A program made the translations under genes and the position numbers. The notes under the pieces were generated by a model that was not told the origin of the DNA, searched no databases, and worked only from the letters and a program-made list of their open reading frames with translations. This document shows positions 6,941 to 56,587 of a stretch of DNA of 64,000 nt, in pieces. Each line of letters opens with the position of its first letter. Positions within the stretch are counted from its first letter, which is position 1. This stretch comes from Chelativorans xinjiangensis (GTDB lineage Bacteria > Pseudomonadota > Alphaproteobacteria > Rhizobiales > Rhizobiaceae): assembly GCF_009812055.1 (NCBI RefSeq), contig NZ_WQNH01000025.1:1-64000 (forward strand). The letters are read 5' to 3'.

Positions 6941-6954
6941 TTGACACACATCAA
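6941..6954. promoter_or_regulatory. FixK/Fnr box upstream of the FAAL fusion gene
   Basis: Sequence TTGACACACATCAA, a perfect TTGA-N6-TCAA palindrome. If it acts at -41.5 as in class II Fnr promoters, transcription would start near 6989, 18-27 nt before the 7007/7016 start codons. Confidence 0.75.
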
Positions 6955-7015
6955 GGCCTAAATAGCCGCGGCCGTTAGCATTGCGGCATAAAAGAAGCAA
7001 CAATGGTTGCCATGC

Positions 7016-9841
7016 ATGAGCGATGACGCAAAATCGCGCGAGCGTGACTTGATTGCAGTTGTTCGCGAACTTGTGCGTGAGCTTCATCCGCAACGTGCAA
7101 ACGCGATTGAAATTCGGCCCAAGAGCAGGATCGAAAGAGACCTCGGCATCGACAGCCTCGGCAGGACCGAGCTGATTTTGCGGATCGAGCGTGCCTTCCG
7201 CGTGCAACTGCCGGTTCAGATCGTCGGAGAGGCCGATACGGTCAGCGATCTGATCGACGCGCTGGAGCAGGCTGGCCCAAGGCGGGTTGCGACGCGCATG
7301 CTTGCCGCCGCCGCCCTGCCACTTGTCCCGGCCGCCAGCGAGGCTACGACGCTCGTCGAAGTTCTCGATTGGCATGTGTCACGCCACCCAGATCGCCTGC
7401 ATCTGACGATCCTGCAGGACGACGCAACAATACTGGGTGCGATGACCTATGCAGAACTGGCGAAATCAGCTCACATCGTTGCTGGGGGCCTGATCGGGCG
7501 CGATGTCCAGCCAGGTGATCGGGTCGCCTTGATGCTGCCCACCAGCCTTGAGTTTTTCTCAGCTTTTTTCGGCATTCTTTATGCGGGAGCAATACCGGTG
7601 CCGATCTATCCGCCGATGCGGCTGACCCAGATTGAGGATCACCTGCGCCGCCAAGCGGGTATCCTCCGCAATGCCGGCGCTCGCATACTCGTCACCATGC
7701 CGGAGGGAAAGGCTGCGGCAGCTCTGCTGCGAGCGCAACTGGAAACCTTGGACAGCGTCGAGAGCGTCGCAAGCCTCGGCACCGAACCTGCAGTCATGCA
7801 GTTGCCGCCGCGCGGCGATCTACATTCGACAGCCTTGATTCAATATACATCAGGCAGCACCGGAGACCCTAAAGGCGTGGTGCTCAGCCACGCCAACCTG
7901 CTTGCCAATATCCGCGCAATGGGCTCCGTGATGGAGGCGAGTTCGGCTGATGTGTTTGTCAGCTGGCTGCCACTCTACCACGACATGGGCCTGATCGGCG
8001 CTTGGCTTGGATGCCTTCATTATGCCGCTCCACTTTACGCGATGTCGCCGCTGAGTTTTCTCGTGCGGCCGGGGAGTTGGCTGTGGGCCATCCACCGGTT
8101 TCGCGCCACATTTTCCGCTTCTCCGAACTTCGGATTTGAATTGTGTCTCAACAAGATCGAGGACACTGATCTCAAAGGGTTAGATCTCAGCTCGCTACGG
8201 ATGGTCGCCAATGGGGCAGAACCGGTCAGCGTCCAAACACTGCGCCGGTTCATCGAAAGATTTGGACGTTACGGCTTCAAACCAAATGCGATGGCGCCCG
8301 TCTACGGCCTCGCCGAAAACTCAGTGGGGCTAGCCTTTCCCCCACTAGGCCGCCCGCCGATCATCGATCGCGTGGATCGCAGCGCACTGGCCAGCAATGG
8401 GATCGCTGCGCCCGCCGATCCAGGCGATACGAAGCCGCTCGAAATCGTCGCCTGCGGCCAGCCGCTGCCAGGACATGAAATCCGCATCGTCGATGCGGCC
8501 GGCTACGAGGTTGGCGAACGCCGAGAGGGCAGACTCGAATTCCGCGGACTATCGGCGACATCGGGCTACTTCCGGAACGATGCGAAGACACGCGAGCTCC
8601 TTCGCGATGGCTGGCTCGATAGCGCGGACAGAGCCTACATGGCGAAGGGGGACATTTACATCACAGGCCGGGTCAAGGACATCATCATCCGCGCGGGACG
8701 TCACATCTACCCTCAACAGATCGAAGAAGCCGTCGCAGACATCCCCGGCGTGCGCAAAGGGGGCGTCGCGGTGTTCGGCGTTCCCGATCAAGCCTCTGGA
8801 ACGGAGCGTGTCATCGTCGTGGCGGAAACACGCGAGATCGATCCAGCCGTTAAGGCGACACTGCAGGCGCGCGCTCATGAGGTAGTGACAGATATCGCCG
8901 GAACACCTCCCGACGACATCGTTCTCGCGCCGCCGAGGACCGTGCCGAAGACGTCGAGTGGGAAGATACGTCGCAGCGCGGCGAAGGAGCTTTACGAGAG
9001 TGGCAAAATGGGAACACGGCAGCGTACACTCTGGTGGCAGGTCTTTCGACTATCGCTTTCGGGGGTGGTCCCTCAAATGAGGCGCTTGCGCCGGCTCGCC
9101 GCCGACGTTGTCTACGCCGGATGGTGGTGGATGGTCGTGGCGTGCAGCTTCCTGCTGGCGTGGCTGGCTGTGATGGTTCTGCCGCGAAGCGACTGGCGCT
9201 GGGTTGCTGTGAGGACAATCGCCCGGGCCGCACTTGCCGCCGCCGGCGTGACCGTCACGGTGTACGGCATCGACCATATCCCACGGCAGAACGCAATGCT
9301 CGTGTTCAACCACTCAAGCTACATGGACGCATTGGTCCTGTCAGCGGTTCTCCCAGGCAAACCAGCTTTCGTTGCCAAGAAAGAACTGGCCGGACAGTTT
9401 TTCGCCGGACCGTTCTTGCGTCGACTGGGCACATTGTTCGTCGAGCGGTACGATGTTGCTGGCAGCCTCTCCGACGCCGAGGCGTTGATCGCCGTCGCCC
9501 GGCAAGGGCGCATTCTAGTTTTTTTCCCTGAAGGCACGTTCACACGCAGACCAGGGCTCTCGGCCTTTTATCTTGGGGCCTTCAAGATTGCGGCTGAAAC
9601 AAACTTGCCGGTGCTGCCCGGCACCATCCATGGAACGCGATCCATGCTGCGCGGCGATCAATGGTTTCCAAGGTGGACCCCGGTCACCGTCGAGATCGGC
9701 TCGCCGGTCACGGCGCCGGGAACCGATTTCGCGTCAGTTTTGCTTCTCCGGGACACGGCACGCAAAGAAATGCTCGCCCGCTGTGGAGAGCCTGACCTGG
9801 GCGAGATGGTAAAACCGACACTGCCTGAAGCGGAAGTTTGA
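7016..9841 (+). CDS. ACP - fatty acyl-AMP ligase - PlsC acyltransferase fusion
   Basis: A 941-residue three-domain protein. Residues about 1-85 are an acyl carrier domain with the phosphopantetheine serine in DLGIDSLGRTELI. Residues about 100-660 are an adenylate-forming fatty acyl-AMP ligase (P-loop-like YTSGSTGDPKGVVLSH, then YGLAENSVGLAF, and KDIIIRAGRHIYPQQIEE). After a hydrophobic stretch (about 700-730), residues about 750-925 form a 1-acylglycerol-3-phosphate acyltransferase with the NHSSYMDAL (Nx4D variant of the Hx4D motif) and FFPEGTF motifs. The logic suggests activation of a fatty acid, loading on its own ACP and transfer to a lysolipid or similar acceptor at the membrane. In NHSSYMD the histidine and aspartate of H-x4-D are kept. 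ATG 7016 is preferred over TTG 7007. Confidence 0.88.
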   Translation: MSDDAKSRERDLIAVVRELVRELHPQRANAIEIRPKSRIERDLGIDSLGRTELILRIERAFRVQLPVQIVGEADTVSDLIDALEQAGPRRVATRMLAAAALPLVPAASEATTLVEVLDWHVSRHPDRLHLTILQDDATILGAMTYAELAKSAHIVAGGLIGRDVQPGDRVALMLPTSLEFFSAFFGILYAGAIPVPIYPPMRLTQIEDHLRRQAGILRNAGARILVTMPEGKAAAALLRAQLETLDSVESVASLGTEPAVMQLPPRGDLHSTALIQYTSGSTGDPKGVVLSHANLLANIRAMGSVMEASSADVFVSWLPLYHDMGLIGAWLGCLHYAAPLYAMSPLSFLVRPGSWLWAIHRFRATFSASPNFGFELCLNKIEDTDLKGLDLSSLRMVANGAEPVSVQTLRRFIERFGRYGFKPNAMAPVYGLAENSVGLAFPPLGRPPIIDRVDRSALASNGIAAPADPGDTKPLEIVACGQPLPGHEIRIVDAAGYEVGERREGRLEFRGLSATSGYFRNDAKTRELLRDGWLDSADRAYMAKGDIYITGRVKDIIIRAGRHIYPQQIEEAVADIPGVRKGGVAVFGVPDQASGTERVIVVAETREIDPAVKATLQARAHEVVTDIAGTPPDDIVLAPPRTVPKTSSGKIRRSAAKELYESGKMGTRQRTLWWQVFRLSLSGVVPQMRRLRRLAADVVYAGWWWMVVACSFLLAWLAVMVLPRSDWRWVAVRTIARAALAAAGVTVTVYGIDHIPRQNAMLVFNHSSYMDALVLSAVLPGKPAFVAKKELAGQFFAGPFLRRLGTLFVERYDVAGSLSDAEALIAVARQGRILVFFPEGTFTRRPGLSAFYLGAFKIAAETNLPVLPGTIHGTRSMLRGDQWFPRWTPVTVEIGSPVTAPGTDFASVLLLRDTARKEMLARCGEPDLGEMVKPTLPEAEV

Positions 9842-9908
9842 AGATTCCGCAGCAATGCTCCTTCCACCGATTTCCGCCACCGTGCCTCAACCATTCGCAC
9901 TCGGAGAG

Positions 9909-9922
9909 TTGATCTGAATCAT
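9909..9922. promoter_or_regulatory. Imperfect FixK/Fnr box
   Basis: TTGATCTGAATCAT, one mismatch in the last position of TTGA-N6-TCAA. At -41.5 it would give a start near 9957, 38 nt before the small membrane peptide at 9995. Confidence 0.45.
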
Positions 9923-12105: not shown

Positions 12106-12119
12106 TTGATCTGAATCAA
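12106..12119. promoter_or_regulatory. Orphan FixK/Fnr box
   Basis: TTGATCTGAATCAA, a perfect box. No intact gene follows in either direction within several hundred bases; it probably belonged to a gene that has been lost. Confidence 0.65.
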
Positions 12120-13666: not shown

Positions 13667-13680
13667 TTGACGGAGGTCAA
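13667..13680. promoter_or_regulatory. FixK/Fnr box for the BCAM0308 gene
   Basis: TTGACGGAGGTCAA. Read leftward at -41.5 it places the start of transcription near 13632, 38 nt before the ATG at 13594. Confidence 0.75.
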
Positions 13681-13714: not shown

Positions 13715-13728
13715 TTGATATGCATCAA
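13715..13728. promoter_or_regulatory. FixK/Fnr box for the DUF2267 operon
   Basis: TTGATATGCATCAA. Read rightward at -41.5 transcription would start near 13763, about 70 nt before the first gene of the operon. It is the second of two boxes in one divergent spacer. Confidence 0.75.
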
Positions 13729-13833: not shown

Positions 13834-14274
13834 ATGACGAGCGGACATCCCACCTTCGATCACACCGTGCAGGAGGCCAACATTTGGCTCAAGGCTGTTG
13901 CCGAGCAGCTTCACTTCGAGGAGCGACGCTACGCTTACAGCGCGCTGAGGGCCACGTTGCACGCGCTGCGTGACCGGCTTACACCTGAAAGCGCGGTGCA
14001 TTTTGGCGCCCAACTGCCGATGGTCGTGCGCGGACTCTACTACGAGGGCTGGCGGATTGCCGGAAAGCCGAGGGAAGACCACACGGTCAACGAGTTCTGC
14101 GACCATGTCGCAAGCGAGTTGCCGCCGAAATTTCCAATGGACGCCCTCACAGTCGCGCGCGGCGTCTTCGCGGTCATCTTCAAGGAACTCGATCCGGGCG
14201 AGACGGCAAAGATCATCGATCAGTGGCCGGTGTCGCTCAGAAGCTTGTGGCCGGAGATCGCGCGCCGCAGCTAG
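13834..14274 (+). CDS. DUF2267 protein, copy 1
   Basis: A 146-residue soluble helical protein. Segments YAYSALRATLHALRDRL, GAQLPMVVRGLYYEGW and VARGVFAVIFKELDPGE are typical of DUF2267, a family of unknown function frequent in stress and low-oxygen gene clusters. TTG at 13828 would add two residues and sits closer to the GGAG upstream, so the start is not certain. It heads a co-directional operon with SPW, BON, a second DUF2267 and ChaB genes. Confidence 0.85.
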   Translation: MTSGHPTFDHTVQEANIWLKAVAEQLHFEERRYAYSALRATLHALRDRLTPESAVHFGAQLPMVVRGLYYEGWRIAGKPREDHTVNEFCDHVASELPPKFPMDALTVARGVFAVIFKELDPGETAKIIDQWPVSLRSLWPEIARRS

Positions 14275-14312
14275 GTGGGCGAAATGCCTGAGCGATCGTA
14301 ATGGAGGTCAAA

Positions 14313-14672
14313 ATGAACGAACAACGTTGGCAGGACTGGATTACGACCCTGATTGGATTCTACGTGTTTCTTTCGCCCTGGGTCATCCCGTACTTCTTTC
14401 CCGATTCTGCGGTCACGGGAATGGCGGCGTGGAGCCATTACGTCGTCGGCGCGGCAATTGTCATCATGGGCATTGTGGCGCTGGCCTCGGACCAGTTGTG
14501 GGAAGAATGGGTGGAGGTCTTCCTGGGCGTATGGCTCGTCATTGCGCCCTGGGCCCTGGGCTTTGCAGAAATGACGCCGTTTGTCTGGAATTCTGTCATC
14601 ATCGGCGTCATCCTGATGGCTCTGTCTGCAAGCACGCTTTTCACCGGCTTCAACGCCAAGAGTATCACCTGA
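14313..14672 (+). CDS. SPW-repeat membrane protein
   Basis: A 119-residue protein with four hydrophobic helices and two copies of the SPW-type repeat (YVFLSPWVIPYF and WLVIAPWALGFAEM). ATG 14313 is preferred over 14301 because GGAGGTC lies 7 nt before it. The family sits in the inner membrane and its function is unknown. The N-terminal MNEQRWQDW is shared with the 57-residue protein at 9995. Confidence 0.82.
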   Translation: MNEQRWQDWITTLIGFYVFLSPWVIPYFFPDSAVTGMAAWSHYVVGAAIVIMGIVALASDQLWEEWVEVFLGVWLVIAPWALGFAEMTPFVWNSVIIGVILMALSASTLFTGFNAKSIT

Positions 14673-14749
14673 TCGTGTCGGAACGGGCTCGAGAAGCGAG
14701 ACGTTCCGGCTTCTCGCCGTAATGGAATTGGCTTGCGGAGAACCAGGTG

Positions 14750-15475
14750 ATGGAAGATGCCGAACTTGTGCAGCACGCGCTCAAGGCACTGCGGAGCGAG
14801 CCGCGCATAGGTCGGCAGTTCAAGCCAGACCTTATCCGGCTCGAAGCCGATGGAGCGATCCTGATCGAGGGAGAAGTGAATACGGTCGCGCAGAAGCGGC
14901 TCGCTCTGGAGCGGCTTGCAGCGATTCCCGGTATCAACGGCATCGTCGATCGGCTCCACCTGCGGCCGCCCGTTCCGATGAGCGACGACGGTATCCTCGA
15001 TCATCTGCGAAAAACCTTCATTCAGGAGTCGGCATTCACAGGCGCGCGGATAGCCGAAAGGCAAGGTGAAAGGGCGGTCTTGGTTCGTGGTTCGCCTTAT
15101 CACGAATTTGGCACGATCGAGTTCGAAGTCGAGAACGGCGTCGTGACATTGAACGGTTCGGTGCCGAGCCTCACATCGAAGCGTCTGGCTGGTGTGCTTG
15201 CATGGTGGGTGCCCGGGAGCCGGGACGTCATCAACGGAATCGCCGTCAATCCGCCGGAAGAGGATGCTCCGATTCTCATCGAGGAAGCGGTTCGCATCGC
15301 TCTTGAGAAGGACCGCTTTGTGGATGCCTCCCAGGTTCGTGTGGGTATCAGAGGCCGGATCGCTCGCCTCACGGGACTCGTGAAGGCGAGCGAGATGCGC
15401 TACGCGGCCGAAGCCGATGCCTGGTACGTCTTCGGAGTTGATGACGTCGTCAACGAGATCGAGGTCAAGGCGTAG
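14750..15475 (+). CDS. BON-domain protein with repeated BON modules
   Basis: A 241-residue protein with no clear signal peptide. It contains two to three BON (OsmY-type) modules: about residues 15-70 (GAILIEGEVNTVAQKRLALE), 100-165 (IEFEVENGVVTLNGSVPS) and 175-240 (RIARLTGLVKASEMRYAAE). BON domains bind lipids or membranes, but the protein looks cytoplasmic. It follows the SPW gene by 77 bp and precedes the second DUF2267 gene in the same operon. Confidence 0.82.
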   Translation: MEDAELVQHALKALRSEPRIGRQFKPDLIRLEADGAILIEGEVNTVAQKRLALERLAAIPGINGIVDRLHLRPPVPMSDDGILDHLRKTFIQESAFTGARIAERQGERAVLVRGSPYHEFGTIEFEVENGVVTLNGSVPSLTSKRLAGVLAWWVPGSRDVINGIAVNPPEEDAPILIEEAVRIALEKDRFVDASQVRVGIRGRIARLTGLVKASEMRYAAEADAWYVFGVDDVVNEIEVKA

Positions 15476-15498
15476 ACGCCACGAGGAGAGATCGACCG

Positions 15499-15918
15499 GT
15501 GACAGTTACCCAAGAGGTGCGCAAGGCTGTCGAGGACACCACAAGCTGGATCGATGACCTGATGCAGCGCCTAGGATGGCACGAGAGTGACCATGCCTAC
15601 CTGGCTCTCGTTGCAGGCTTGCATGCGCTTCGCGATGCTCTGGGGCGAGACGAAGCGATCTCCTTGGGCGCGCAACTACCGCCGCTGCTGCGCGGACTTT
15701 ACTATGAGGGCTGGCATCCCGGCCAACACGCTGCTGCCCGAGGCAGGGGTGCATTTCTGGAACGGATCCACGACGGCGTCCATCGGAGTCCCGCGATCGA
15801 CGCCGAACGGGTCGCCCGTGCGCTGCTTGCCTTGCTGGCAGCACGGCTGTCCGCCCCGGAGCTCGAAAATGCAAAGGCGGCAACGCCACCTGCGCTTCAC
15901 TATCTCTGGCCGGATTGA
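15499..15918 (+). CDS. DUF2267 protein, copy 2
   Basis: A 139-residue paralog of the operon's first gene, with YLALVAGLHALRDAL and GAQLPPLLRGLYYEGWHPG. It starts at GTG 15499 after GAGGAGAGATC. Two diverged DUF2267 genes in one operon suggest they may form a hetero-oligomer; that is inference only. Confidence 0.82.
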   Translation: MTVTQEVRKAVEDTTSWIDDLMQRLGWHESDHAYLALVAGLHALRDALGRDEAISLGAQLPPLLRGLYYEGWHPGQHAAARGRGAFLERIHDGVHRSPAIDAERVARALLALLAARLSAPELENAKAATPPALHYLWPD

Positions 15919-16206: not shown

Positions 16207-18063
16207 TCAATCAGCCTCGCGCTCCATGACGCAGCAATGCGGCGCATTGGCCCCCTCGTTTCCAGCGCTCAATATCGCGGCGCGGGCAGGTGAGACGCGA
16301 AAAGTCGTGCAGCCCTTCAGGCCAAGGTCATACGCCATGTCGTAGACGCCGCGAAAGTCCTCGAATGACGTTTCTTCCGCGACGTTGATCGTCTTGGAGA
16401 TGGCGTTGTCGACAAAGGGTTGCAGCGCCGCCTGCATCAGAAGATGCTCCCTGGGAGAAAGTTCGGCAGCCGAGCGGAAGGCGGGCGGCAGCCGGCTCTG
16501 CGAAGGCAGCCGAGTCCTTTGCCACGACGCCACCGCTCGGTCGGTCAGTTCGAAGGCACGGACATCACCGGACGCGTCCAGCACGTTGCGACTGTAGCCG
16601 GCCGCGAAGGCGGGTTCGATCCCGCTCGATATGTTGTTGGCGAGAAGGCTGATGGAGCCGGTCGGCGCAATGGCGATCAGGTGGCTGTTGCGAATGCCGT
16701 GCTTTGCGACGGCATCGCGAATGTCTGCAGGAAGGCCGGCAATGAACGGGCTCGACAGATAGCCGTCTCGGGCGAAGGCTGGAAACATGCCCTTCTCCGC
16801 GGCAAGCTCGATCGAGGTTCGGTAGGCGGCAAGGCAGACGGTCCGCATGATTCCTGTCGCGACCGCCCGTGCTTCCTCGCTGCCGTAGTCGAGGCCGAGC
16901 ATGACGAGGGCATCGGCCAATCCCGTGATGCCAAGCCCGATCCTCCTCGTGTTGCGGGCCGCCTCTGCCTCTCGGCGCAAGGGGAAGCGTGACACGTCGA
17001 TCACGTCGTCGAGGAAACGGGTCGCAAGCCTCGCGGTCTCCGCAAGCGTATCCTCGTCGAGCCGGGCGCCGGCGCTGAAAGGCTCGCGGACGAATTGGGT
17101 CAAGTTGATGGAGCCGAGGTCGCAGGCTCCATAAGGGGGCAGGGGGATTTCGCCGCAGGGGTTCGTCGCCGTGAGCCGCTCGCGATAGTGAAGATTGTTG
17201 AGCCGATTGATGCAATCGATGAACAGGACACCCGGTTCCGCATGGTCATAGGTCGCCCGCAGGATGCTGTCCCACAGATTGCGTGCCCTAAGGCGCCGAT
17301 GCACCCGGCAGCGCATGGCGCCTTCGCGGCCGGTCCAGTCGCGAAGGACGACCTCCTCGCCCGGTGGCTCTCCGCCGGCTGCCGGAAAGACCAGGGCCCA
17401 CTCCCGGTCCGCGCGCACGGCTGCCATGAAGGCATCGCTCACCTGCACGGAGAGATTGAAATGGCACAGCGCGCCCGGCGCCTGCTTGGCTGTGACGAAG
17501 GTCTCGATGTCGGGATGGTCGCAGCGTAATGTGGCCATCATCGCCCCGCGGCGCGAGCCCGTCGAAAGCATAGTCGCGCACATTGAATCCCACAGGCCCA
17601 TGAAGGAGACCGGGCCGGAGGCGATCGAGCCGACCCCACGCGCTGGCGTGCCGCGCGGGCGCAGGCTCGAGAAGTCGTAGCCCACACCGCCGCCTTGCTG
17701 CATGGTGATCGCCCCCTCGCGCAGCGCGCCGAAGATGCCGTCGATGGAATCCCCGATCGTTCCCATCACGAAGCAATTGAAGAGCGTCACCTTGAACCCG
17801 GTGCCCGCGCCTGCAAGGATGCGTCCGCCAGGCAGGAAGCGGAAGCCGTCGAGCAGGGTCAGGAAGGCGGCTTGCCATCTCTGCCGGTCCGCCGGCTCCG
17901 CCCGGGAGATTGCGCGGGCGACGCGCCGCCAGGTGTCGCGGACCGTGTCGTCCACGATCCTGTCGCCCGCACGGCCGCGATACTTGCTTTCCCAGATGAA
18001 GCGCGAGACTTCCGCCTCCAATGGGTCTGACTTCATGCCGTTGCCGCTTGCCGTCAGGTTCAT
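16207..18063 (-). CDS. nrdJ: Class II (B12-dependent) ribonucleoside-diphosphate reductase
   Basis: A 618-residue protein reducing ribonucleotides to deoxyribonucleotides with adenosylcobalamin, so it works without oxygen. Recognisable parts are FLPGGRILAGAGT, the cysteine segment TLFNCFVMG, GGGVGYDFSSLRPRGTPARG, TNPCGEIPLPPYGACDLGSI with the radical-site cysteine, and the nucleotide-binding APTGSISLLA. The C-terminus ends in PHCCVMEREAD, whose adjacent cysteines probably replace the usual CxxC reductant pair. ATG 18063 is chosen because it lies just past the ACP gene with GAAGGGTG upstream. It is the last gene of the acs-PDH operon, under the Fnr box at 23365. Confidence 0.9.
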   Translation of the reverse strand: MNLTASGNGMKSDPLEAEVSRFIWESKYRGRAGDRIVDDTVRDTWRRVARAISRAEPADRQRWQAAFLTLLDGFRFLPGGRILAGAGTGFKVTLFNCFVMGTIGDSIDGIFGALREGAITMQQGGGVGYDFSSLRPRGTPARGVGSIASGPVSFMGLWDSMCATMLSTGSRRGAMMATLRCDHPDIETFVTAKQAPGALCHFNLSVQVSDAFMAAVRADREWALVFPAAGGEPPGEEVVLRDWTGREGAMRCRVHRRLRARNLWDSILRATYDHAEPGVLFIDCINRLNNLHYRERLTATNPCGEIPLPPYGACDLGSINLTQFVREPFSAGARLDEDTLAETARLATRFLDDVIDVSRFPLRREAEAARNTRRIGLGITGLADALVMLGLDYGSEEARAVATGIMRTVCLAAYRTSIELAAEKGMFPAFARDGYLSSPFIAGLPADIRDAVAKHGIRNSHLIAIAPTGSISLLANNISSGIEPAFAAGYSRNVLDASGDVRAFELTDRAVASWQRTRLPSQSRLPPAFRSAAELSPREHLLMQAALQPFVDNAISKTINVAEETSFEDFRGVYDMAYDLGLKGCTTFRVSPARAAILSAGNEGANAPHCCVMEREAD

Positions 18064-18079: not shown

Positions 18080-18322
18080 CTACGCGCTCCCCGCGAGATA
18101 TGCAACAACGCCGTCCATCGTGAACAGCTTCGGATAGTCCTCTTCGGGGATCGCCACGCCGGTTCGCTTGTTGAGGGCGATGATGAAGTTGAGGAAATCC
18201 ATGGAATCAATGTCGAGTGCTGCGCGGATGTCGCTGCCGCCGGCAAGTGCTGCCGGATCCGTTTCCGGTGCGATGTCGGAAAGGATCTCGCTGGCGAGCT
18301 TGCGGATTTCAGCTTCGGTCAT
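18080..18322 (-). CDS. Acyl carrier protein
   Basis: An 80-residue carrier protein, with the phosphopantetheine serine in ALDIDSMDFLNFII. Its ATG overlaps the E2 stop codon by 4 nt, so it is translated with the dehydrogenase. The YPKLFTMDGVVAYL tail resembles ACPs found beside PDH-like operons rather than the fatty acid synthase AcpP. A role as acyl acceptor for the complex or for the FAAL fusion protein is speculation. Confidence 0.85.
   Translation of the reverse strand: MTEAEIRKLASEILSDIAPETDPAALAGGSDIRAALDIDSMDFLNFIIALNKRTGVAIPEEDYPKLFTMDGVVAYLAGSA

Positions 18323-21522: not shown

Positions 21523-21526
<4 letters not shown>
20540..21526 (-). CDS. Pyruvate/2-oxoacid dehydrogenase E1 alpha subunit
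   Basis: A 328-residue thiamine-diphosphate subunit. The ThDP/Mg motif is [20 protein letters not shown] followed by CENNLYAMG, and the phosphorylation-loop-like region reads RFRAHSMFD. The sequence [15 protein letters not shown] and [10 protein letters not shown] are typical of PDH and acetoin dehydrogenase E1 alpha. Stop and start codons overlap those of its neighbours, indicating strict co-translation after the acetyl-CoA synthetase gene. Confidence 0.9.
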
Positions 21527-23313
<1,787 letters not shown>

Positions 23314-23364: not shown

Positions 23365-23378
23365 TTGACGGAGATCAA
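23365..23378. promoter_or_regulatory. FixK/Fnr box for the acs-PDH-nrdJ operon
   Basis: TTGACGGAGATCAA. Read leftward at -41.5, transcription would start near 23330, just ahead of the GAGGAGG of the acs gene. Confidence 0.8.
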
Positions 23379-23394: not shown

Positions 23395-23550
23395 TCAACC
23401 TTTGACACGGATGAGGGGCCTCATACGCGCCAATGCGGCTTGCTCGAAGGCTTCCGCGACCGAGCCGCCATATCCGCACACGCCGATATCCGCGTCGTGG
23501 TGGAAGTGCTCCCACCCTGCCACGCGGGAGGGGTTGCCTGAGGCCGTCAT
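23395..23550 (-). pseudogene. Archease, C-terminally truncated
   Basis: A 51-residue frame containing [20 protein letters not shown] then [10 protein letters not shown], the unmistakable N-terminal part of archease (activator of RtcB-type RNA ligase, normally about 140 residues). The metal-binding aspartate of HDADIG is present, but the rest of the fold is gone and the last ten residues are foreign. The ATG overlaps the stop codon of the HPF/cold-shock gene, so the intact ancestor was translationally coupled to it. Confidence 0.75.
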
Positions 23551-27416: not shown

Positions 27417-27419
27417 CGG

Positions 27420-39168: not shown

Positions 39169-39171
39169 GCT

Positions 39172-41535: not shown

Positions 41536-41538
41536 ACC

Positions 41539-45931: not shown

Positions 45932-46246
45932 TCAGACCAATCTGGGAGGGGGAACTGGAATCCGCACGAGCCGGAATGCGCCGTGCTCGTTTGCCGGCGC
46001 CGTCTGGTTATCTTCGACGCTGGCGCCGAGAACAAATGCATGTGGCAGAACCGCTGGTGCATGGTGGCAATGGATCGAAGTTCCGCAGTCGTCCTTCGTA
46101 TCCAAGGGTCCGGATTGAGACCCGATGGCATCAGCGGTATGGCTGACGGTCACAGTCAGGGCGTGTTCGATGTTTTCAGCGGGGAACGACTGGACGGTGA
46201 TCGCGACGGAGAAAATGAGCGCGAACAGTGCAACAAATGCCCCCAT
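45932..46246 (-). CDS. Small secreted His/Cys-containing protein
   Basis: A 104-residue protein (125 if read from 46309). An N-terminal signal-like helix (GAFVALFALIFSVAIT) is followed by a mature part with CGTSIHCHHAPAV and a C-terminal proline-rich end (RIPVPPPRLV). This layout resembles small periplasmic proteins of metal-resistance clusters, but I cannot name the family. The Fnr box at 46351 would start transcription near 46316, which leaves a sensible leader only for the 46246 start. Confidence 0.5.
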   Translation of the reverse strand: MGAFVALFALIFSVAITVQSFPAENIEHALTVTVSHTADAIGSQSGPLDTKDDCGTSIHCHHAPAVLPHAFVLGASVEDNQTAPANEHGAFRLVRIPVPPPRLV

Positions 46247-46350
46247 CCGTCTTGGCGGGGCGGATCTGTTCGCTCGATATGCTGCAGTCCAGAACATCAC
46301 AAGATCCATTTGATCTCGTAAAATTCTAGCTGGCGAACCTCATCGGGCAT

Positions 46351-46364
46351 TGATGTTGGTCAAA
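46351..46364. promoter_or_regulatory. FixK/Fnr box for the small secreted protein gene
   Basis: TTGATGTTGGTCAA. Leftward at -41.5 the transcript would begin near 46316, 70 nt before ATG 46246. Confidence 0.7.
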
Positions 46365-47485: not shown

Positions 47486-48064
47486 ATGGCACGCCTTGTC
47501 CGGGGATCACTGACCATATCCGTGATGTTGGCTGCACTTGCGATGACGCAACCCGCCAACGCTCACGGGTCCGATGAACACGCCGCTTCGCCGGAAACCG
47601 ATACGATGGTGGGGCGTATGCGCGAGATGCACGAGGGCCATGAGCACGGCCATGACTTCGCGGCCATCGAGTCAATGGCGCCGGAGGACATGCAGCGCGT
47701 CATCCGGGTCATGACGGATATCGGCCTGGCGGTTCCGCCAATGGATGCCCATCGCGGCCGCGAGCTCTTCATGGCCAAGGGCTGCGTAGCCTGCCATCAG
47801 GTCAATGACGTGGGCGGAGAAATCGGTCCCGCGCTGAACGCCGCCGACATGCCGTCGCCGATGAATGCCTTCGAATTTGCTGCCCGCATGTGGCGCGGTG
47901 CCGGCGCGATGGTCGGGATGCAGCAGGAGCTTCTGGGCGAGCAGATCAACCTCACCGGACAGGAGCTTCTCAATCTCGTCGCCTTCGCCCACGACGAAGC
48001 CGAGCAACGGGAGGTGTCGAAGGACGACATACCGGCCGAGTTCAGGGAGTTCACCGACTACTGA
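47486..48064 (+). CDS. Periplasmic c-type cytochrome, monohaem
   Basis: A 192-residue secreted protein. Signal peptide about 1-26 (ending PANAHG), then a histidine-rich linker (HEGHEHGHDF) and one haem site KGCVACHQVND, with a likely axial methionine in PSPMNAF or MWRGAGAMVGM. GGAGG precedes ATG 47486. An electron carrier for a low-oxygen respiratory chain is the natural guess, supported by the Fnr box; its partner is not in the window. Confidence 0.85.
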   Translation: MARLVRGSLTISVMLAALAMTQPANAHGSDEHAASPETDTMVGRMREMHEGHEHGHDFAAIESMAPEDMQRVIRVMTDIGLAVPPMDAHRGRELFMAKGCVACHQVNDVGGEIGPALNAADMPSPMNAFEFAARMWRGAGAMVGMQQELLGEQINLTGQELLNLVAFAHDEAEQREVSKDDIPAEFREFTDY

Positions 48065-48510: not shown

Positions 48511-48524
48511 TTAATCTCGGTCAA
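48511..48524. promoter_or_regulatory. Weak FixK/Fnr-like site
   Basis: TTAATCTCGGTCAA, one mismatch in the first half-site. It is only 27 bp before the start at 48551, closer than usual, so its role is doubtful. Confidence 0.3.
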
Positions 48525-49288: not shown

Positions 49289-50647
49289 ATGAATCTGAAA
49301 TTCCTCGGCGGTGTCGGAACCGTCACGGGCTCGAAATACCTCCTTGAGTTCGACGGAGCCCGCGTGCTCGTCGACTGCGGGTTGTTTCAAGGTTTCAAGC
49401 AGCTGCGCCTGCGCAACTGGGCGCCGTTTCCGGTCGATCCCGCGAGCATCGATGCGGTCATCCTCACCCACGCGCACCTCGACCATACCGGCTACCTGCC
49501 CTTGCTCGTCAGGAACGGTTTTTCGGGACCGGTCATCTGCACGGAGGCGACGCGCGATCTTTGCGCGATCCTTTTGCCCGACAGCGGCTTTCTGCAGGAA
49601 AAGGACGCCGACTACGCCAACCGCCACGGCTTCTCGAAGCATCATCCGGCACTGCCGCTTTACACGCGCCGCGACGCTGAAGTGTCGCTGGCGCGGTTCG
49701 CACCCGTGCCGTTCAGGAAGGAACGTACGGTTTCGGGCGGACTTTCGGTCCGCTTCCTGCCGGCGGGACACATCCTGGGGGTGGCGATCGTGGAAGTGAA
49801 ATATGCGGATCGCACCATCGTCTTTTCGGGCGATCTCGGCCGGACGAACAGCGCGACGATGCTCGACCCCAGCCCGGTCAGCCATGCCGATTATCTTCTG
49901 GTGGAGTCCACCTACGGCAATCGTCGGCATGAAAAGCGGGATCCGGAGGAAGCCCTTGCCGATGTGATCACTCGTACGGCGGGTCGTGGCGGAACGGTGC
50001 TTATCCCCGCCTTCGCTGTCGGGCGGGCGCAGACCCTTCTGTTCCATCTGCAGCGCCTCAAGGAGATGCGACGCATTCCCGACATTCCCGTTTTCCTCGA
50101 CAGTCCCATGGCGGTGAATGCCAGCGAGGTGTTCTGCAAGCATCTCGGGGACCACCGACTGACCGCCGATCAGTGCAGGTGGTCGTGCAACGTCGCGCAC
50201 TATGTGCGCGAAACCGAGGAGTCGAAGGCACTTGATCGGGATCCGATGCCGAAGGTCATCATCTCGGCGAGCGGTATGGCAACCGGCGGTCGGGTTCTGC
50301 ATCATCTCAAGCGCTACGCACCGGATGCGCGCAACACGATCCTGTTTTCCGGCTTCCAGGCCGGCGGCACGCGCGGCGCGGCCATCACGGCCGGAGCGGA
50401 AAGCGTGAAGATCCATGGTGCGCAGGTCCCGATCCGTGCGGAGGTTGACAACCTGCACATGCTGTCGGCACATGCAGACGCGGACGAGATCATGCACTGG
50501 CTCGGCAACTTCGCCGAACCGCCGCGCATGACCTTCATCACCCATGGTGAACCGGAGGCCGCGGACGCGCTGCGCCACAGGATCGAGAGTGAGTATGGCT
50601 GGGCCTGCTGGGTGCCCGAGCACCGGGAGGAGACCGTCCTCACATGA
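49289..50647 (+). CDS. Beta-CASP metallo-beta-lactamase nuclease
   Basis: A 452-residue RNA-processing type hydrolase. The MBL part has the zinc motif THAHLDHTGYLP, later LPAGHILGVA and FSGDLGR; the beta-CASP insert follows (ADYLLVESTYGNRRHEKRDP, LIPAFAVGRAQTLLFHLQRL, PVFLDSPMAVNASEVF) and the C-terminal motifs are VIISASGMATGGRVLHHLKR and LHMLSAHADADEIMHWL. The HAD of the last motif is typical. These enzymes cut or degrade RNA. The stop overlaps the start of the phosphorylase gene, so it is tied to the nucleotide genes downstream. Confidence 0.92.
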   Translation: MNLKFLGGVGTVTGSKYLLEFDGARVLVDCGLFQGFKQLRLRNWAPFPVDPASIDAVILTHAHLDHTGYLPLLVRNGFSGPVICTEATRDLCAILLPDSGFLQEKDADYANRHGFSKHHPALPLYTRRDAEVSLARFAPVPFRKERTVSGGLSVRFLPAGHILGVAIVEVKYADRTIVFSGDLGRTNSATMLDPSPVSHADYLLVESTYGNRRHEKRDPEEALADVITRTAGRGGTVLIPAFAVGRAQTLLFHLQRLKEMRRIPDIPVFLDSPMAVNASEVFCKHLGDHRLTADQCRWSCNVAHYVRETEESKALDRDPMPKVIISASGMATGGRVLHHLKRYAPDARNTILFSGFQAGGTRGAAITAGAESVKIHGAQVPIRAEVDNLHMLSAHADADEIMHWLGNFAEPPRMTFITHGEPEAADALRHRIESEYGWACWVPEHREETVLT

Positions 50648-52185
50648 GCACAAGGCGCATCGGCGACACGAAGCAGCCAGTCCCGGACTCAAACGTCTTG
50701 CGTGCGCGGCGGCTGGGCATAGACACGCAATACGAAGCGGTTGTCTTCATGCACAACGACTGTCCGGTCTGCCGCTCGGAAGGCTTCACCTCCCATGCCC
50801 GCGTGCGCCTGACGCATGGCGGGCACACGGTCATCGCGACGCTCTACCACACCACGGGTGATCTCCTTTCGCGCGATGAGGCGGGCCTGTCGGATGCCGC
50901 CTGGCGGCGGCTCGGCCTGCGTGACGGCGAAACGGTGACGGTGAGCCATCCTCGCCCGCTGGACTCGCTGAGGAGCGTGCGCGGCAAGGTCTATGGACGG
51001 CGGCTCGATGCGGGTGCATTCAAGGAAATTGTCGGCGACATCGTCGCCGGCCGTTATTCGGACATCCATCTTTCCTCCTTCATCACGGCCTGTTCCGCGC
51101 GGCCGCTCGACCACGACGAAACCGTCGCGCTGACGAAGGCCATGACCGAGGCCGGCGACCGGCTGGCCTGGGACACGCGACCGGTCGTCGACAAGCATTG
51201 TGTCGGCGGTCTTCCGGGAAACCGGACCACCCCCATCGTTGTGGCGATCGCAGCCGCCTGCGGTCTCACCATGCCAAAGACCTCCTCACGCGCCATCACG
51301 TCGCCCGCTGGAACGGCGGACACCATGGAGACGCTGGCGCCGGTCGATCTCGACCTTCCGGTCATGCGGCGGGTGGTCGAGCAGGAGGGCGGGTGCGTGG
51401 TATGGGGCGGCGCGGTGCGGCTGAGCCCCGCGGACGACACGCTGATCCGTGTCGAGCGGGCGCTCGATCTCGATAGCGAGGGCCAACTCGTGGCCTCCGT
51501 GCTGTCGAAGAAGATCGCCGCAGGCGCCTCCCATGTCGTCCTCGACCTGCCGGTGGGGCCGACGGCGAAAGTGCGCGGCCCAGAGGCCGCGGCGGCCCTG
51601 TCGCAAAGCCTTGTGGCAGTTGCCCGCGCGTTCGATATCGAGGCGCGCGCGATCATCACGGACGGGCGTCAGCCGGTCGGCCGCGGCATCGGGCCCGCCC
51701 TCGAAGCGTGGGATGTCCTGGCTGTGCTGCAAGCTGCGCCGAATGCCCCGCAGGATCTGCGCGAACGGTCCGTCGCTCTGGCGGCGACCCTGCTTGAGCT
51801 CGGCGGAGCCGCGGCGGAGGGCAGGGGCGCCGAGCTTGCCACCCGCACGCTCCATGAGGGTCGGGCGTGGCAGAAGTTCCAGCGTATCTGCGCGGCACAG
51901 GGCGGGATGCGCGAGCCGCCAAGAGCGGCCCACCGCAGTCCCGTCCTCGCGGTAAGGAGCGGAAAGGTCACCGCAATCGACAATCGCCGCCTGGCCAAGG
52001 TGGCCAAGCTTGCCGGGGCGCCGGACGACAAGGCCGCGGGGGTCGAACTCCACGTCCGCCTCGGTGCAACGGTCGACGCCGGCGAGCCACTTTATACCGT
52101 GCACGCCGAGGCGCCGGGTGAGCTTGCCTACAGCCTCGACTACGTGGCGGCGAACGCAGACATCATCGAGGCGAGGGAAGCGTGA
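50644..52185 (+). CDS. AMP phosphorylase / thymidine phosphorylase-family enzyme
   Basis: A 513-residue protein. Like archaeal AMP phosphorylase it has an extra N-terminal domain (about 1-90), then the glycosyltransferase family 3 core with DKHCVGGLPGNRTTPIVVAI for phosphate binding and SSRAITSPAGTADTMETLAP. That second motif is the variant seen in nucleoside-5'-phosphate phosphorylases rather than in DeoA. The likely reaction is AMP (or another NMP) plus phosphate to ribose-1,5-bisphosphate plus base. No RuBisCO gene or ribose-1,5-bisphosphate isomerase is nearby. It overlaps both neighbours. Confidence 0.85.
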   Translation: MSTRRIGDTKQPVPDSNVLRARRLGIDTQYEAVVFMHNDCPVCRSEGFTSHARVRLTHGGHTVIATLYHTTGDLLSRDEAGLSDAAWRRLGLRDGETVTVSHPRPLDSLRSVRGKVYGRRLDAGAFKEIVGDIVAGRYSDIHLSSFITACSARPLDHDETVALTKAMTEAGDRLAWDTRPVVDKHCVGGLPGNRTTPIVVAIAAACGLTMPKTSSRAITSPAGTADTMETLAPVDLDLPVMRRVVEQEGGCVVWGGAVRLSPADDTLIRVERALDLDSEGQLVASVLSKKIAAGASHVVLDLPVGPTAKVRGPEAAAALSQSLVAVARAFDIEARAIITDGRQPVGRGIGPALEAWDVLAVLQAAPNAPQDLRERSVALAATLLELGGAAAEGRGAELATRTLHEGRAWQKFQRICAAQGGMREPPRAAHRSPVLAVRSGKVTAIDNRRLAKVAKLAGAPDDKAAGVELHVRLGATVDAGEPLYTVHAEAPGELAYSLDYVAANADIIEAREA

Positions 52186-53093
52186 TGCGGCCACTCATTG
52201 TCACGCTGCGCGAAGGCGAAACGCTCGCGAAGCCACTGGCGGAGGCTGTCGGCGGGGAGGTTGCTTGCGTCGAAGTCCGTCGCTTCCCCGACGGCGAGAC
52301 CTATCTAGGCTACGATACGGCTCCTTCGGGGAGGTCTGTCCTGCTGCTTTGCTCGCTCGACCGGCCGGCCGACAAGTTCCTCCCGCTCATGTTTGCCGCC
52401 GACACGGCCCACGACCTGGGTGCGGCATCGGTGGGGCTCGTGAGCCCGTATCTGGCCTATATGCGGCAGGATCGGCGTTTCCGGCCAGGCGAAGCGGTCA
52501 CCTCGACCTATTTCGCCAGGATTCTGTCCGGTCACGTCGACTGGCTGGTCACAGTCGACCCGCACCTTCATCGGCACAGTTTACTCTCCGAGCTGTACGA
52601 CATGCCGGCAGTGGCATTGCACGCAGCACCGCTGATCGCCGAGTGGATTCGTCAATCCGTAGAGCGGCCTCTTCTCGTCGGCCCGGACGAGGAGAGCGAG
52701 CAGTGGGTGGCCGCGGTCGCGCGCGAGGCACGCGCGCCGCATGTAGTGCTGCGCAAGATCCGCCGTGGGGATCGCGACGCCGAGATTTCGGTCCCGGACA
52801 TCGATGAGTGGCGCGAGTGCACGCCAGTGTTGGTCGACGACATCGTCTCGACCGCGCGTACGATGATCGAGACGGTGCGCCATCTCCTGCGTGTCGGCAT
52901 GCGGCCGCCCGTATGCGCTGCGGTACACGGCCTGTTCGCGGGCAACGCCTATCAGGAGCTGCTCCAGGCTGGCGCGGCACGCGTCGCGACGTCGAACACC
53001 GTCGCCCATGCTTCCAACGCCATAGACGTCACTGGACTGCTTGCGCGCGCGGTTCGCGGCATGCTCGCGAAGACCTTGCCTCGACGACGCTAA
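52185..53093 (+). CDS. Ribose-phosphate pyrophosphokinase (accessory)
   Basis: A 302-residue PRPP synthetase-like enzyme. VEVRRFPDGETYLGYD, the catalytic loop YLAYMRQDRRFRPGEAVTST, VDPHLHRH for metal/ATP, and the PRPP loop VLVDDIVSTARTMIET are present. The PRPP loop has the VDDIVSTxxT form of the class III/archaeal-like group rather than VDDMIDTGGT. ATG 52185 (GTG 52182 also open) overlaps the stop of the phosphorylase gene. It is unlikely to be the housekeeping prs, given its place beside the NMP phosphorylase. Confidence 0.88.
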   Translation: MRPLIVTLREGETLAKPLAEAVGGEVACVEVRRFPDGETYLGYDTAPSGRSVLLLCSLDRPADKFLPLMFAADTAHDLGAASVGLVSPYLAYMRQDRRFRPGEAVTSTYFARILSGHVDWLVTVDPHLHRHSLLSELYDMPAVALHAAPLIAEWIRQSVERPLLVGPDEESEQWVAAVAREARAPHVVLRKIRRGDRDAEISVPDIDEWRECTPVLVDDIVSTARTMIETVRHLLRVGMRPPVCAAVHGLFAGNAYQELLQAGAARVATSNTVAHASNAIDVTGLLARAVRGMLAKTLPRRR

Positions 53094-55874: not shown

Positions 55875-56041
55875 CCGATCGATCGGGTGGGAAACGTCAT
55901 CGCGCTTGCCAGGCTGTTCGGTGTCGCATTCGCGGAGTTTCCAGCCCTTCATTGATGCAGATCATGGCTTCATCGAAGCTACAGGCCACTTTGCAGGCAT
56001 ATCAATCACGGCAATCCCAACGCGGTAAGGAGTGTAGACTG

Positions 56042-56149
56042 ATGATGGATGGATTTGGAGGCATGGGGTTCGGCGGAATCGGAATGCTGCTCATCCTGGT
56101 GTTGGTGGTTCTGGCGATTACGGCGCTGGTCAAATACCTGCGCAGCTGA
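56042..56149 (+). CDS. Tiny single-helix membrane peptide, copy B (35 aa)
   Basis: Sequence starts MMDGFGGMGFGGIGMLL and ends VLAITALVKYLRS, preceded by AAGGAG about 11 nt upstream. It is a close relative of the 32-residue peptide at 46485. Membrane insertion is clear from the sequence; function is unknown. Confidence 0.65.
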   Translation: MMDGFGGMGFGGIGMLLILVLVVLAITALVKYLRS

Positions 56150-56573
56150 GTCCCGGCGGACGCGTTGTGTCACGCTCTGGCGAAACCTGGTTGCTTGGCG
56201 GATATGGCGATGTCGGCCTCAAGACGGCGTGCAGACTTTGCGACATCCGGCGATCAGGCGGAAATCACCGCCTTGATGACCGCAGCCACCACCGTGTCCG
56301 CGCTGGGTTCCTCCCGAGGCGGGGTCGTTCACTCCGATGCGATCCTGACATTCGATGATGCGGCTCGCCTTCTTGCGGCCCATCTGCCTGAAACGGCAAT
56401 GTTGCTGAGCTTCGACAAACAAGTGAGCGTCTCTTCTTTGAAGACACTTCTTCCAAGCGCGGAGCAAGGACAGGCAGCAAGTTGCCGAAGACTTTGCGAG
56501 TGTCCCGCGGAGCCGGCTTAAATTTGCTCCGCCCGACTAAAGCGTCTCTCTGCCGCTTGTCCCGCCGTTTGAA
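56150..56573. other. Gene-free stretch
   Basis: About 420 bp. A plus-strand frame (56165-56521) contains VVHSDAILTFDDAARLLAAH, which reads like protein, but I cannot assign it and it lacks a good start. Possibly a relic. Confidence 0.4.
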
Positions 56574-56587
56574 TTGACGGGGATCAA
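56574..56587. promoter_or_regulatory. FixK/Fnr box for the first Spy-like gene
   Basis: TTGACGGGGATCAA. Rightward at -41.5 the start would be near 56622, 29 nt before ATG 56651. Confidence 0.8.

What the first reader, a model, noticed from the sequence alone, without database searches (positions are those of the whole stretch)
6941..56587. A dense FixK/Fnr regulon: sixteen perfect TTGA-N6-TCAA boxes in about 50 kb
Boxes lie at 6941, 12106, 13667, 13715, 23365, 24524, 28190, 29771, 30219, 30299, 33710, 34543, 36304, 46351, 47339 and 56574, with weaker sites at 9909 and 48511. With eight fixed positions and about 62% GC, less than one is expected by chance. In many cases, assuming the box is centred at -41.5, the start of transcription falls 15-100 nt ahead of the gene's start codon. 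This ties unrelated genes (RNR, PDH, HPF, FtsH, Usp, Spy, cytochrome c) into one low-oxygen programme.
Basis: partly seen in the sequence, partly recalled or inferred. Interest (0 to 1): 0.85.

Follow-up and report, generated by a model that had tools for sequence, protein, structure and literature searches.

The report
Mobile low-oxygen survival gene island
A 50-kb stretch of an alphaproteobacterial genome is studded with the switch sequence that bacteria use to turn genes on when oxygen runs low, and the stress-survival genes it controls look like a transferable package that also occurs, with its switches, on conjugative plasmids of other bacteria.

Summary
The genome has 95 in 5.69 Mb, reversed-pattern control 24, so the window holds about 16 times its share. 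None of the 17 lies in a gene I predicted, at 72% coding. A -10-like hexamer sits at the spacing expected for a box centred near -41. Canonical FixK/Fnr targets (ccoN, ccoG, hemN) are boxed elsewhere in the genome, which has FixK-like and FnrL-like regulators. The acs-PDH box recurs in relatives. The best relative found is a predicted-conjugative Sinorhizobium fredii plasmid: 33 strict boxes in 201 kb, control 0, homologues of 19 of 48 window genes, box presence concordant. Strict counts vary 6-58 in 16 genomes of the genus, so much of this is accessory. It is a new member of a known kind: a FixK/Fnr regulon island resembling the Burkholderia lxa locus. Six boxes lack a predicted target. Oxygen-dependent expression was not tested.

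The parts
6941..6954 (.). perfect box TTGACACACATCAA; 68.5 nt upstream of start 7016
7016..9841 (+). AMP-binding / phosphopantetheine / acyltransferase protein (941 aa)
   Evidence: Pfam; perfect box before 2 of 13 class relatives (control 0)
9909..9922 (.). one-mismatch box; by coordinates 79.5 nt upstream of a predicted 57-aa ORF at 9995
12106..12119 (.). perfect box TTGATCTGAATCAA with no predicted gene start within 200 nt
13667..13680 (.). perfect box TTGACGGAGGTCAA, distal of a pair (160.5 nt from the DUF2267 gene)
13715..13728 (.). perfect box TTGATATGCATCAA; 112.5 nt before the DUF2267 gene
   Evidence: boxed relatives
13834..15918 (+). DUF2267 - SPW - BON - DUF2267 cluster
   Evidence: Pfam
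16207..18063 (-). nrdJ, B12-dependent ribonucleotide reductase, last gene of the acs-PDH run
   Evidence: NCBIfam TIGR02504 over cut-off; no match in the 80 named acs loci at the thresholds
18080..23313 (-). acs, E1-alpha, E1-beta, E2, acyl carrier protein (five-gene module)
   Evidence: Pfam; conserved together in named loci
23365..23378 (.). perfect box; 58.5 nt before acs
   Evidence: footprint
23547..24467 (-). CBS-domain gene (24222-24467) then S30AE/HPF plus cold-shock domain gene (23547-24113)
   Evidence: Pfam
24524..24537 (.). perfect box; 63.5 nt before the CBS gene
   Evidence: 64.5 and 63.5 nt in two congeners (2 of 2 matches)
25527..28100 (-). NUDIX-DUF302 ORF (27420-28100; NUDIX match partial) and P-type ATPase (25527-27416)
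   Evidence: Pfam; the NUDIX and DUF302 parts match separate places in congeners
28190..28203 (.). perfect box between divergent genes; 96.5 nt to NUDIX-DUF302, 110.5 nt to Usp
   Evidence: NUDIX part boxed at 91.5 and 103.5 nt in congeners
28307..28762 (+). universal stress protein
   Evidence: Pfam
28951..29724 (+). ZIP metal transporter
   Evidence: Pfam
29771..29784 (.). perfect box, no predicted gene start within 200 nt
30219..30232 (.). perfect loose-form box TTGATCTGTCTCAA; lies in a segment shared with the end of contig C13
30299..30312 (.). perfect box TTGACGCGGATCAA; lies in a segment shared with the end of contig C71
30560..31330 (+). Usp fragment followed by a GH94 C-terminal fragment: remnant genes or an assembly joint
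32836..33546 (-). heavy-metal-associated domain protein
   Evidence: Pfam
33710..33723 (.). perfect box; 170.5 nt before the HMA gene
33849..34479 (-). polyketide_cyc/START-like match split over two frames (apparently decayed)
34543..34556 (.). perfect box upstream of the split START-like gene; no predicted gene start within 200 nt
34578..36182 (-). UbiB/ABC1 kinase-like
   Evidence: Pfam
36304..36317 (.). perfect loose-form box between divergent ubiB (128.5 nt) and ftsH (79.5 nt)
   Evidence: ftsH boxed in 1 of 2 congener matches (70.5) and on pSF45436d (67.5 and 123.5)
36390..42750 (+). ftsH, then ABC ATPase, FtsX/MacB permease, HlyD adaptor
   Evidence: Pfam
45932..46309 (-). small ORF (125 aa, no Pfam match) whose ATG lies, by coordinates, 47.5 nt from the centre of box 46350
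46350..46363 (.). perfect box TTGATGTTGGTCAA
47339..47352 (.). perfect box; 140.5 nt before the cytochrome c gene
47486..48064 (+). c-type cytochrome
   Evidence: Pfam
48511..48524 (.). one-mismatch box
49289..53093 (+). beta-CASP metallo-hydrolase, nucleoside-phosphorylase-like and PRPP-synthetase-like genes; nearest perfect box upstream is 47339
   Evidence: Pfam
56574..56587 (.). perfect box; 70.5 nt before the Spy/LTXXQ gene
   Evidence: the one congener match boxed (103.5 to the projected start)
56651..57202 (+). Spy/CpxP-type LTXXQ protein
   Evidence: Pfam

Best explanation
The window is part of an accessory low-oxygen survival island of a horizontally shared kind. Its genes (stress proteins, a protease, ribosome hibernation, metal transport, quinone and cytochrome upkeep, an acetyl-CoA/PDH module, B12-dependent RNR) carry FNR-family operators. 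When oxygen falls, a FixK-like protein (probably induced by the neighbouring PAS-kinase/response-regulator pair) and/or a cysteine-bearing FnrN/FnrL-like protein binds TTGA-N6-TCAA centred near -41 and activates transcription as a class II activator. Shown by sequence: operator density, intergenic placement, spacing to start codons and to a -10-like hexamer, boxes before related genes in other species, presence of regulators and canonical targets, variation between congeners, a similar boxed gene set on a plasmid typed as conjugative. Inferred: binding, activation, oxygen dependence, mobility of this particular copy.
For: 17 vs 0.59 expected; 15 of the genome's 58 strict sites in 1.1% of the genome; 0 of 17 window boxes, and 1 of 49 over the window plus 11 other stretches of this genome, lie in predicted genes, 36.4 expected; TANNNT at +28.5/+29.5 from the box centre makes up 8 of 11 hits on the gene side (30 sequences) and 1 of 2 on the other side (18), and 14 of 28 vs 1 of 7 on pSF45436d (42 and 26 sequences); hemN, ccoN and ccoG boxed; FixK-like (C58) and Cys-bearing FnrL-like (C4) proteins, PAS kinase and GerE-type regulator beside FixK; acs has a perfect box in 5 of 15 class relatives with upstream sequence (no control run) and in 15 of 79 named loci, control 1 of 79; with up to 1 mismatch 29 vs 4; CBS (2 of 2), DUF2267 at 13834 (2 of 2), NUDIX part (2 of 2), ftsH (1 of 2) and Spy (1 of 1) matches in congeners boxed; strict counts 6-58 over 16 genomes of the genus; pSF45436d 33 strict boxes, control 0, and over 41 homologue pairs box in both 10, ours only 4, plasmid only 5, neither 22, Fisher P 0.0014.
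Against: Six of 17 boxes have no predicted start within 200 nt and some front apparently decayed genes. Many relatives lack a perfect box: 64 of 79 for acs, 11 of 13 for the 7016 gene; of the three congener P-type ATPase matches only one has a box within 400 nt; a Tropicibacter plasmid has the acs module without a box before acs. The FixK-like and FnrL-like proteins score below the NCBIfam equivalog cut-offs (170.8 and 174.5 vs 300). A published table puts activating anaeroboxes of R. leguminosarum at -32 to -34 from the start site (PMC7888657 passage; which point of the box is counted I did not see), not at -41. No transfer or replication gene was identified in the window, so mobility of this copy rests on homology and variability; in congener G250 the box-rich stretch lies on a 5.3-Mb contig. 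No expression data.
Confidence: 0.85

Rival explanations
1. The boxes are read mainly by an NO/nitrite regulator of the NnrR/DNR branch, so the island answers nitrosative stress or denitrification rather than oxygen. DNR-type sites resemble FNR sites (recalled).
For: A third Crp/Fnr protein with a different recognition helix (LHTISR) sits next to hemN/ccoN on C28; a Usp gene was assigned to a DNR regulon in PMC2908626 (passage).
Against: The boxes before ccoN, ccoG and hemN have the same form; FixK-like and FnrL-like proteins with an E--SR helix (FNR type, recalled) are present; no denitrification family appeared among the boxed genes that I scanned, but the genome was not searched for such genes.
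Confidence: 0.1
2. The island is a decaying relic: boxes persist but many targets are broken, so only part of the array works.
For: Usp and GH94 fragments abutting at about 30.8 kb, a START-like gene split over two frames, a NUDIX-DUF302 ORF whose parts match separate places in congeners, boxes 12106 and 29771 without a predicted target, an IS110-family transposase at 4-5 kb.
Against: Most of the boxed genes with a predicted start match most of their Pfam domain and have ordinary spacing; some apparent breaks coincide with contig-joint signals and may be assembly artefacts.
Confidence: 0.3
3. The palindrome belongs to a spread repeat element or to another transcription factor and only mimics FixK/Fnr boxes.
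For: Contig ends share promoter-containing sequence (C13, C71 with window 30180-30326), and a C71 stretch with a box is 83% like window 27885-28256; three identical TTGACAGCTGTCAA sites on C1 look like something else.
Against: The 17 window boxes nearly all differ in their six central bases and in flanks; apart from those segments the blastn comparison of the window with 14 other stretches shows no box-carrying repeat family; canonical Fnr targets carry the motif.
Confidence: 0.03

Closest known systems
Low-oxygen-activated (lxa) locus of Burkholderia cenocepacia (BCAM0275-0323)
   Same: A strain-variable block of stress and metabolism genes induced by low oxygen: six Usp, a heat-shock (alpha-crystallin) protein, BON protein, cytochrome c, phosphofructokinase; the candidate regulator is an Anr/FixK homologue (passages of PMC6127331; of PMC9104464, which also says strain H111 lacks it).
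   Different: Gene set overlaps only in part as far as compared (names, not sequences); here the operators themselves are mapped; betaproteobacterium vs alphaproteobacterium; lxa was found by expression, this by sequence.
Plasmid pSF45436d of Sinorhizobium fredii CCBAU 45436 (typed conjugative, 201 kb)
   Same: 33 strict boxes, control 0; homologues of 19 of 48 window genes, and of 41 of 189 genes of the fetched stretches of this genome, on the 134 kb examined; similar box-to-start distances.
   Different: Gene order differs; it carries three Crp/Fnr HTH matches over the cut-off; 29 of 48 window genes, nrdJ among them, have no homologue at the thresholds. In the passages seen (PMC5991415) it is a non-symbiosis plasmid enriched in strain-dependent transcripts; no FixK regulon is described in them.
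FixK/FnrN/FnrL regulons of rhizobia and Rhodobacter
   Same: Same operator (TTGAT-N4-ATCAA), Usp, cbb3 oxidase and hemN as targets, variable 'extended' regulons (PMC2908626 passages; PMC7888657 passages; FnrN-dependent Hsp20 with a TTGA-n6-TCAA box, PMC11784457 passages).
   Different: R. sphaeroides FnrL has at least 27 target operons, listed at many places of the genome; here 46 of 58 strict sites sit in a few stretches.
Plasmid pBVIE02 of Burkholderia vietnamiensis G4
   Same: FtsH, UbiB, P-type ATPase, beta-propeller genes with 7 loose boxes in 33 kb (loose control 0); all 5 strict boxes of the 265-kb plasmid fall in that stretch.
   Different: Strict control on the whole plasmid is 2, so only the clustering is telling; no Crp/Fnr protein over the Pfam cut-off on the plasmid (best 22.3 bits); no acs-PDH module in the stretch shown.

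Membership tests
FixK/Fnr regulon (class II operators) | Perfect dyad TTGA-N6-TCAA above chance | tested here: met
   17 vs 0.59 expected; 95 vs control 24 genome-wide
FixK/Fnr regulon (class II operators) | Sites intergenic and spaced for activation from about -41.5 with a -10 element | tested here: met
   0 of 17 in predicted genes; TANNNT at +28.5/29.5 in 8 of 11 hits and 14 of 28; no mapped transcription starts
FixK/Fnr regulon (class II operators) | Cognate FixK/Fnr regulator in the genome | tested here: met
   FixK-like on C58, Cys-bearing FnrL/FnrN-like on C4, both with an E--SR helix; both below equivalog cut-offs in NCBIfam
FixK/Fnr regulon (class II operators) | Canonical targets (cbb3 oxidase operon, ccoG operon, hemN) carry the same box | tested here: met
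   C28 boxes 3092 (hemN, ccoN) and 6662 (ccoG); ccoQ, ccoH and ccoS were inferred from place and size, not scanned
FixK/Fnr regulon (class II operators) | Oxygen- and regulator-dependent transcription | not testable with these tools
   no expression data
lxa locus | Block of Usp, Hsp20, BON, cytochrome c and metabolic genes under an Anr/FixK-type regulator | tested here: inconclusive
   BON, Usp, cytochrome c in the window; further Usp on C71 and Hsp20 on C57; the lxa sequence itself was not compared
lxa locus | Induced by low oxygen and needed for anoxic persistence | not testable with these tools
   no expression or survival data
Mobile (plasmid-borne) island | Patchy presence among close relatives | tested here: met
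   strict counts 6-58 in 16 genomes of the genus; for window 11800-31700, matches over 300 bits outside this genome only in G250, G243, G248, G240
Mobile (plasmid-borne) island | Replication, partition or transfer genes on this copy | tested here: inconclusive
   none among the Pfam-scanned window genes, which were not all ORFs; draft assembly; a congener copy on a 5.3-Mb contig

The most novel reading that the evidence does not exclude
A portable regulon: a gene set for surviving oxygen loss that moves between Alpha- and Betaproteobacteria on conjugative plasmids with its FNR-family operators already in place, so that it plugs into whichever FNR-family regulator the new host has (pBVIE02 carries no clear one, pSF45436d carries its own). 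Regulon growth in a lineage would then occur by whole-island gain rather than site by site.
Probability: 0.45. Interest if true: 0.65.

Novelty: new member of a known kind. Interest (0 to 1): 0.48.

Why it matters
Box counts of 6 to 58 within one genus, with about half (17 of 34 and 12 of 28) or a fifth (9 of 42) of the sites of three box-rich congeners lying in the fetched island segments, make a clean case of a regulon that varies through accessory DNA. It offers a sequence-level parallel to the lxa hypoxia locus outside Burkholderia and makes it testable whether a low-oxygen persistence programme is acquired as a pre-wired package. It also points to the accessory S. fredii plasmid pSF45436d as a carrier of a dense FixK/Fnr-box array.

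Tried and rejected
Repeat-element explanation: blastn of the window against 14 other stretches of the genome found paralogous genes, one paralogous boxed promoter region (C71 1179-1549 with window 27885-28256) and contig-end overlaps, but no box-carrying repeat family. Function of box 12106: alignment with a similar stretch of C106 (mean column identity 75%) did not bring the two boxes together; left unresolved. Footprint of the 7016 gene was weak (perfect box in 2 of 13, up to 1 mismatch in 4 of 13; control 0 and 1). nrdJ as part of the conserved acs module: no match in the 80 named loci at the thresholds used. One-mismatch boxes were not used as evidence for the window because they are close to background. 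Naming the genus: not achieved; the class is Alphaproteobacteria because G131, given as same class, has its acs hit at the same coordinates as AP024683.1, a Geminicoccaceae genome (its class is recalled). Among 190 genomes sampled from the class, 4 have more strict sites than this one (not corrected for base composition), so 58 is high but not unique.

Corrections and rows left out: an earlier count said 6 of 15 relatives boxed upstream of acs; recounting one search gives 5 of 15 (6 of 16 with the window itself). The sets overlap (G131 = L069), so they are not independent. Dropped: two of 18 class loci truncated at contig starts, one of 80 named loci. The count of 49 boxes covers about half of the genome's 95; the C1 stretch L028 (4 boxes) and the stretches fetched were not gene-called. 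The 41 homologue pairs include paralogues and operon-internal genes, so the Fisher value is only a guide. The last free search slots of several tools were not used.

Papers: passages only were read of PMC6127331, PMC4999443, PMC2908626, PMC7888657, PMC5991415, PMC11784457 and PMC9104464; others were seen only as search listings with the start of the abstract. The original lxa paper is not held and is known here through the later papers.

Full report
1. Observation. The whole genome (5.69 Mb, 118 contigs; the window is contig C37:1-64000) has 95 sites, reversed-pattern control 24. The stricter form TTGAY-N4-RTCAA has 58, control 4, of which 15 are in the window; 0.65 would be its share. Listing all strict sites puts 46 of 58 in C37, C45, C71, the last 10 kb of C13, the first 7 kb of C28, and C52, C57, C58, C106, C112 (sum). 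So the density is a property of certain stretches, not of the genome as a whole.

2. Genes. Pfam gives an AMP-binding/acyltransferase, DUF2267-SPW-BON-DUF2267, acs-E1a-E1b-E2-ACP-nrdJ, CBS and HPF/cold-shock, NUDIX-DUF302 and a P-type ATPase, Usp, ZIP, HMA, UbiB, FtsH-ABC-FtsX-HlyD, a beta-propeller, cytochrome c, beta-CASP/nucleoside-phosphorylase/PRPP-synthetase-like genes, Spy. In other box-rich stretches of the genome, genes within 400 nt of boxes include GroEL, pyruvate phosphate dikinase, Usp, thioredoxin, DUF3775, host-attachment/baeRF, Hsp20 and CBS-BON proteins; an acetyl-CoA ligase type protein lies in one of these stretches.

3. Architecture. With my own codon-model gene calls, 0 of 17 window boxes lie in genes (72% coding), and 1 of 49 over the window plus 11 further stretches, where 36.4 were expected. 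Eleven of 17 window boxes have a predicted start within 200 nt; for ten starts (8 boxes) the distance from box centre to start is 58.5-140.5 nt, i.e. leaders of 17-99 nt if transcription starts 41.5 nt from the centre. Six boxes have none: three near 30 kb, 12106, 34543 (before a START-like match split over two frames) and 46350 (47.5 nt from a small unclassified ORF). In sequences oriented by their gene, TANNNT starts at 28.5 or 29.5 nt from the box centre in 8 of 11 hits (30 sequences; other side 1 of 2 hits, 18 sequences). The same test on plasmid pSF45436d with NCBI annotation gives 14 of 28 versus 1 of 7 hits (42 and 26 sequences), and 42 of 45 boxes lie outside annotated CDS at 77% coding. 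This places the box near -41, the class II position (recalled for FNR). Against it: PMC7888657 lists activating anaeroboxes at -32 to -34 (reference point of the box not seen).

4. Regulators and positive control. A Crp/Fnr HTH search finds 27 matches, 11 over the cut-off. The C58 protein is FixK-like (no N-terminal cysteine cluster, helix ETVSR) beside a PAS histidine kinase and a GerE response regulator; the C4 protein has a cysteine cluster and helix ESISR and fits FnrL best; the C28 protein has LHTISR. NCBIfam scores of the first two are below equivalog cut-offs. On C28, hemN, ccoN, ccoO, ccoP and ccoG pass their cut-offs, and boxes lie 61.5, 98.5 and 42.5 nt before the predicted starts of hemN, ccoN and ccoG. 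Which regulator acts where is not resolved.

5. Footprints. acs: 5 of 15 class relatives with upstream sequence have a perfect box 111.5 to 33.5 nt before the projected start (no control run). In 79 named loci (of 80 fetched) 15 have a perfect box in -220..+20, control 1; with up to one mismatch 29 versus 4. All 15 are records titled as Alpha-, Beta- or Gammaproteobacteria or as genera that belong there (placing of the genera recalled). In four congeners the fetched segments hold 17 strict boxes in 180 kb and 1 in 20 kb (G250), 12 in 60 kb (G243), 9 in 97 kb (G240) and 2 in 20 kb (G248); the loose reversed control gives 0, 0, 0, 1, 0. Boxes precede the CBS gene (64.5 and 63.5 nt versus 63.5 here), the NUDIX part (91.5, 103.5 versus 96.5), DUF2267 (61.5, 68.5 versus 112.5), ftsH (1 of 2 matches) and Spy (1 of 1); the P-type ATPase is boxed in 1 of 3 matches. 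The 7016 gene: 2 of 13.

6. Mobility. Strict counts in the 16 genomes of the genus, own included, are 58, 42, 34, 28, 21, 19, 18, 15, 14, 12, 11, 11, 11, 10, 8, 6. S. fredii plasmid pSF45436d, typed as conjugative, carries the same kind of set, including Usp, Hsp20, BON, FtsH, DUF2267, DUF3775, HPF, GroEL, PEP synthase, phosphoketolase, Spy, UbiB and the acs-PDH-ACP module, with 33 strict boxes over the whole plasmid, control 0. Of 48 window genes 19 have homologues on the 134 kb examined; over 41 homologue pairs box presence agrees (10 both, 4 ours only, 5 plasmid only, 22 neither; Fisher P 0.0014; operon-internal genes count as 'neither', and paralogues are not independent). B. vietnamiensis pBVIE02 has a smaller such stretch with all 5 of its strict boxes (whole-plasmid control 2) and no Crp/Fnr match over the cut-off. 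A Tropicibacter plasmid has the acs module but no box before acs.

7. Known or new. Operator and logic are those of FixK/Fnr regulons; a microaerobically induced, FnrN-dependent rhizobial Hsp20 with a TTGA-n6-TCAA box is published (PMC11784457 passages), and variable extended regulons are described (PMC2908626 passages). The nearest named system is lxa. I found no paper describing pSF45436d or this island as a box-dense FixK regulon among the listings or the passages read. Hence new member of a known kind, with a bolder portable-regulon reading left open.

8. Caveat on the assembly. Ends of seven contigs (C2, C4, C13, C71, C83, C106, C111) coincide with nine stretches of 88-235 nt inside the window between 23.4 and 31.3 kb; the path there may be partly an assembly choice. 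The density of boxes on the rest of the contig does not depend on it. Contig C112 shares its first 85 nt with window 2-86 and its last 88 nt with C45:4423-4510, so C45, C112 and the window are probably neighbours.

Noticed in passing
window 18080-23313: acs, E1alpha, E1beta, E2 and acyl carrier protein travel together: matched in 80, 77, 72, 65 and 58 of 80 named loci, a set whose titles include Proteobacteria, Nitrospira, Acidobacteria, mycobacteria and Anaerolinea. An ACP next to a PDH-like complex, with no E3 among the Pfam-scanned neighbours in the window, is odd; function unknown.
   Followed up: partly
window 23428-23662, 25272-25359, 27253-27343, 30180-30326, 30563-30650, 30708-30953, 31253-31340: Other contigs of the same genome begin or end with these stretches (mostly 88-91 nt), marking repeat nodes or assembly joints inside the window.
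   Followed up: partly
window 30560-31330: A Usp N-terminal fragment abuts a GH94 C-terminal fragment; contig C111 (8.9 kb) has one end on each side of the joint, so the fusion may be a deletion or a misassembly.
   Followed up: partly
window 27420-28100: One ORF holds a partial NUDIX match and a DUF302 domain; in congeners the two parts match separate places, so it may be a fusion or remnant.
   Followed up: no
window 3995-6620: IS110-family transposase (Pfam), and next to it what reads like an IS3-family element (not tested).
   Followed up: no
G000 C1:379874, 382024, 382205: Three identical fully palindromic TTGACAGCTGTCAA sites within 2.4 kb, unlike the island boxes; probably another regulator.
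   Followed up: no
window 36390-38249: The boxed FtsH is about 65% identical to FtsH on E. coli and Salmonella plasmids, recalling transmissible heat/stress-tolerance loci (recalled).
   Followed up: no
window 49289-53093: beta-CASP hydrolase, nucleoside-phosphorylase-like and PRPP-synthetase-like genes form a trio; the last two recur in the same 4 named acs loci (L068, L071, L078, L116).
   Followed up: no
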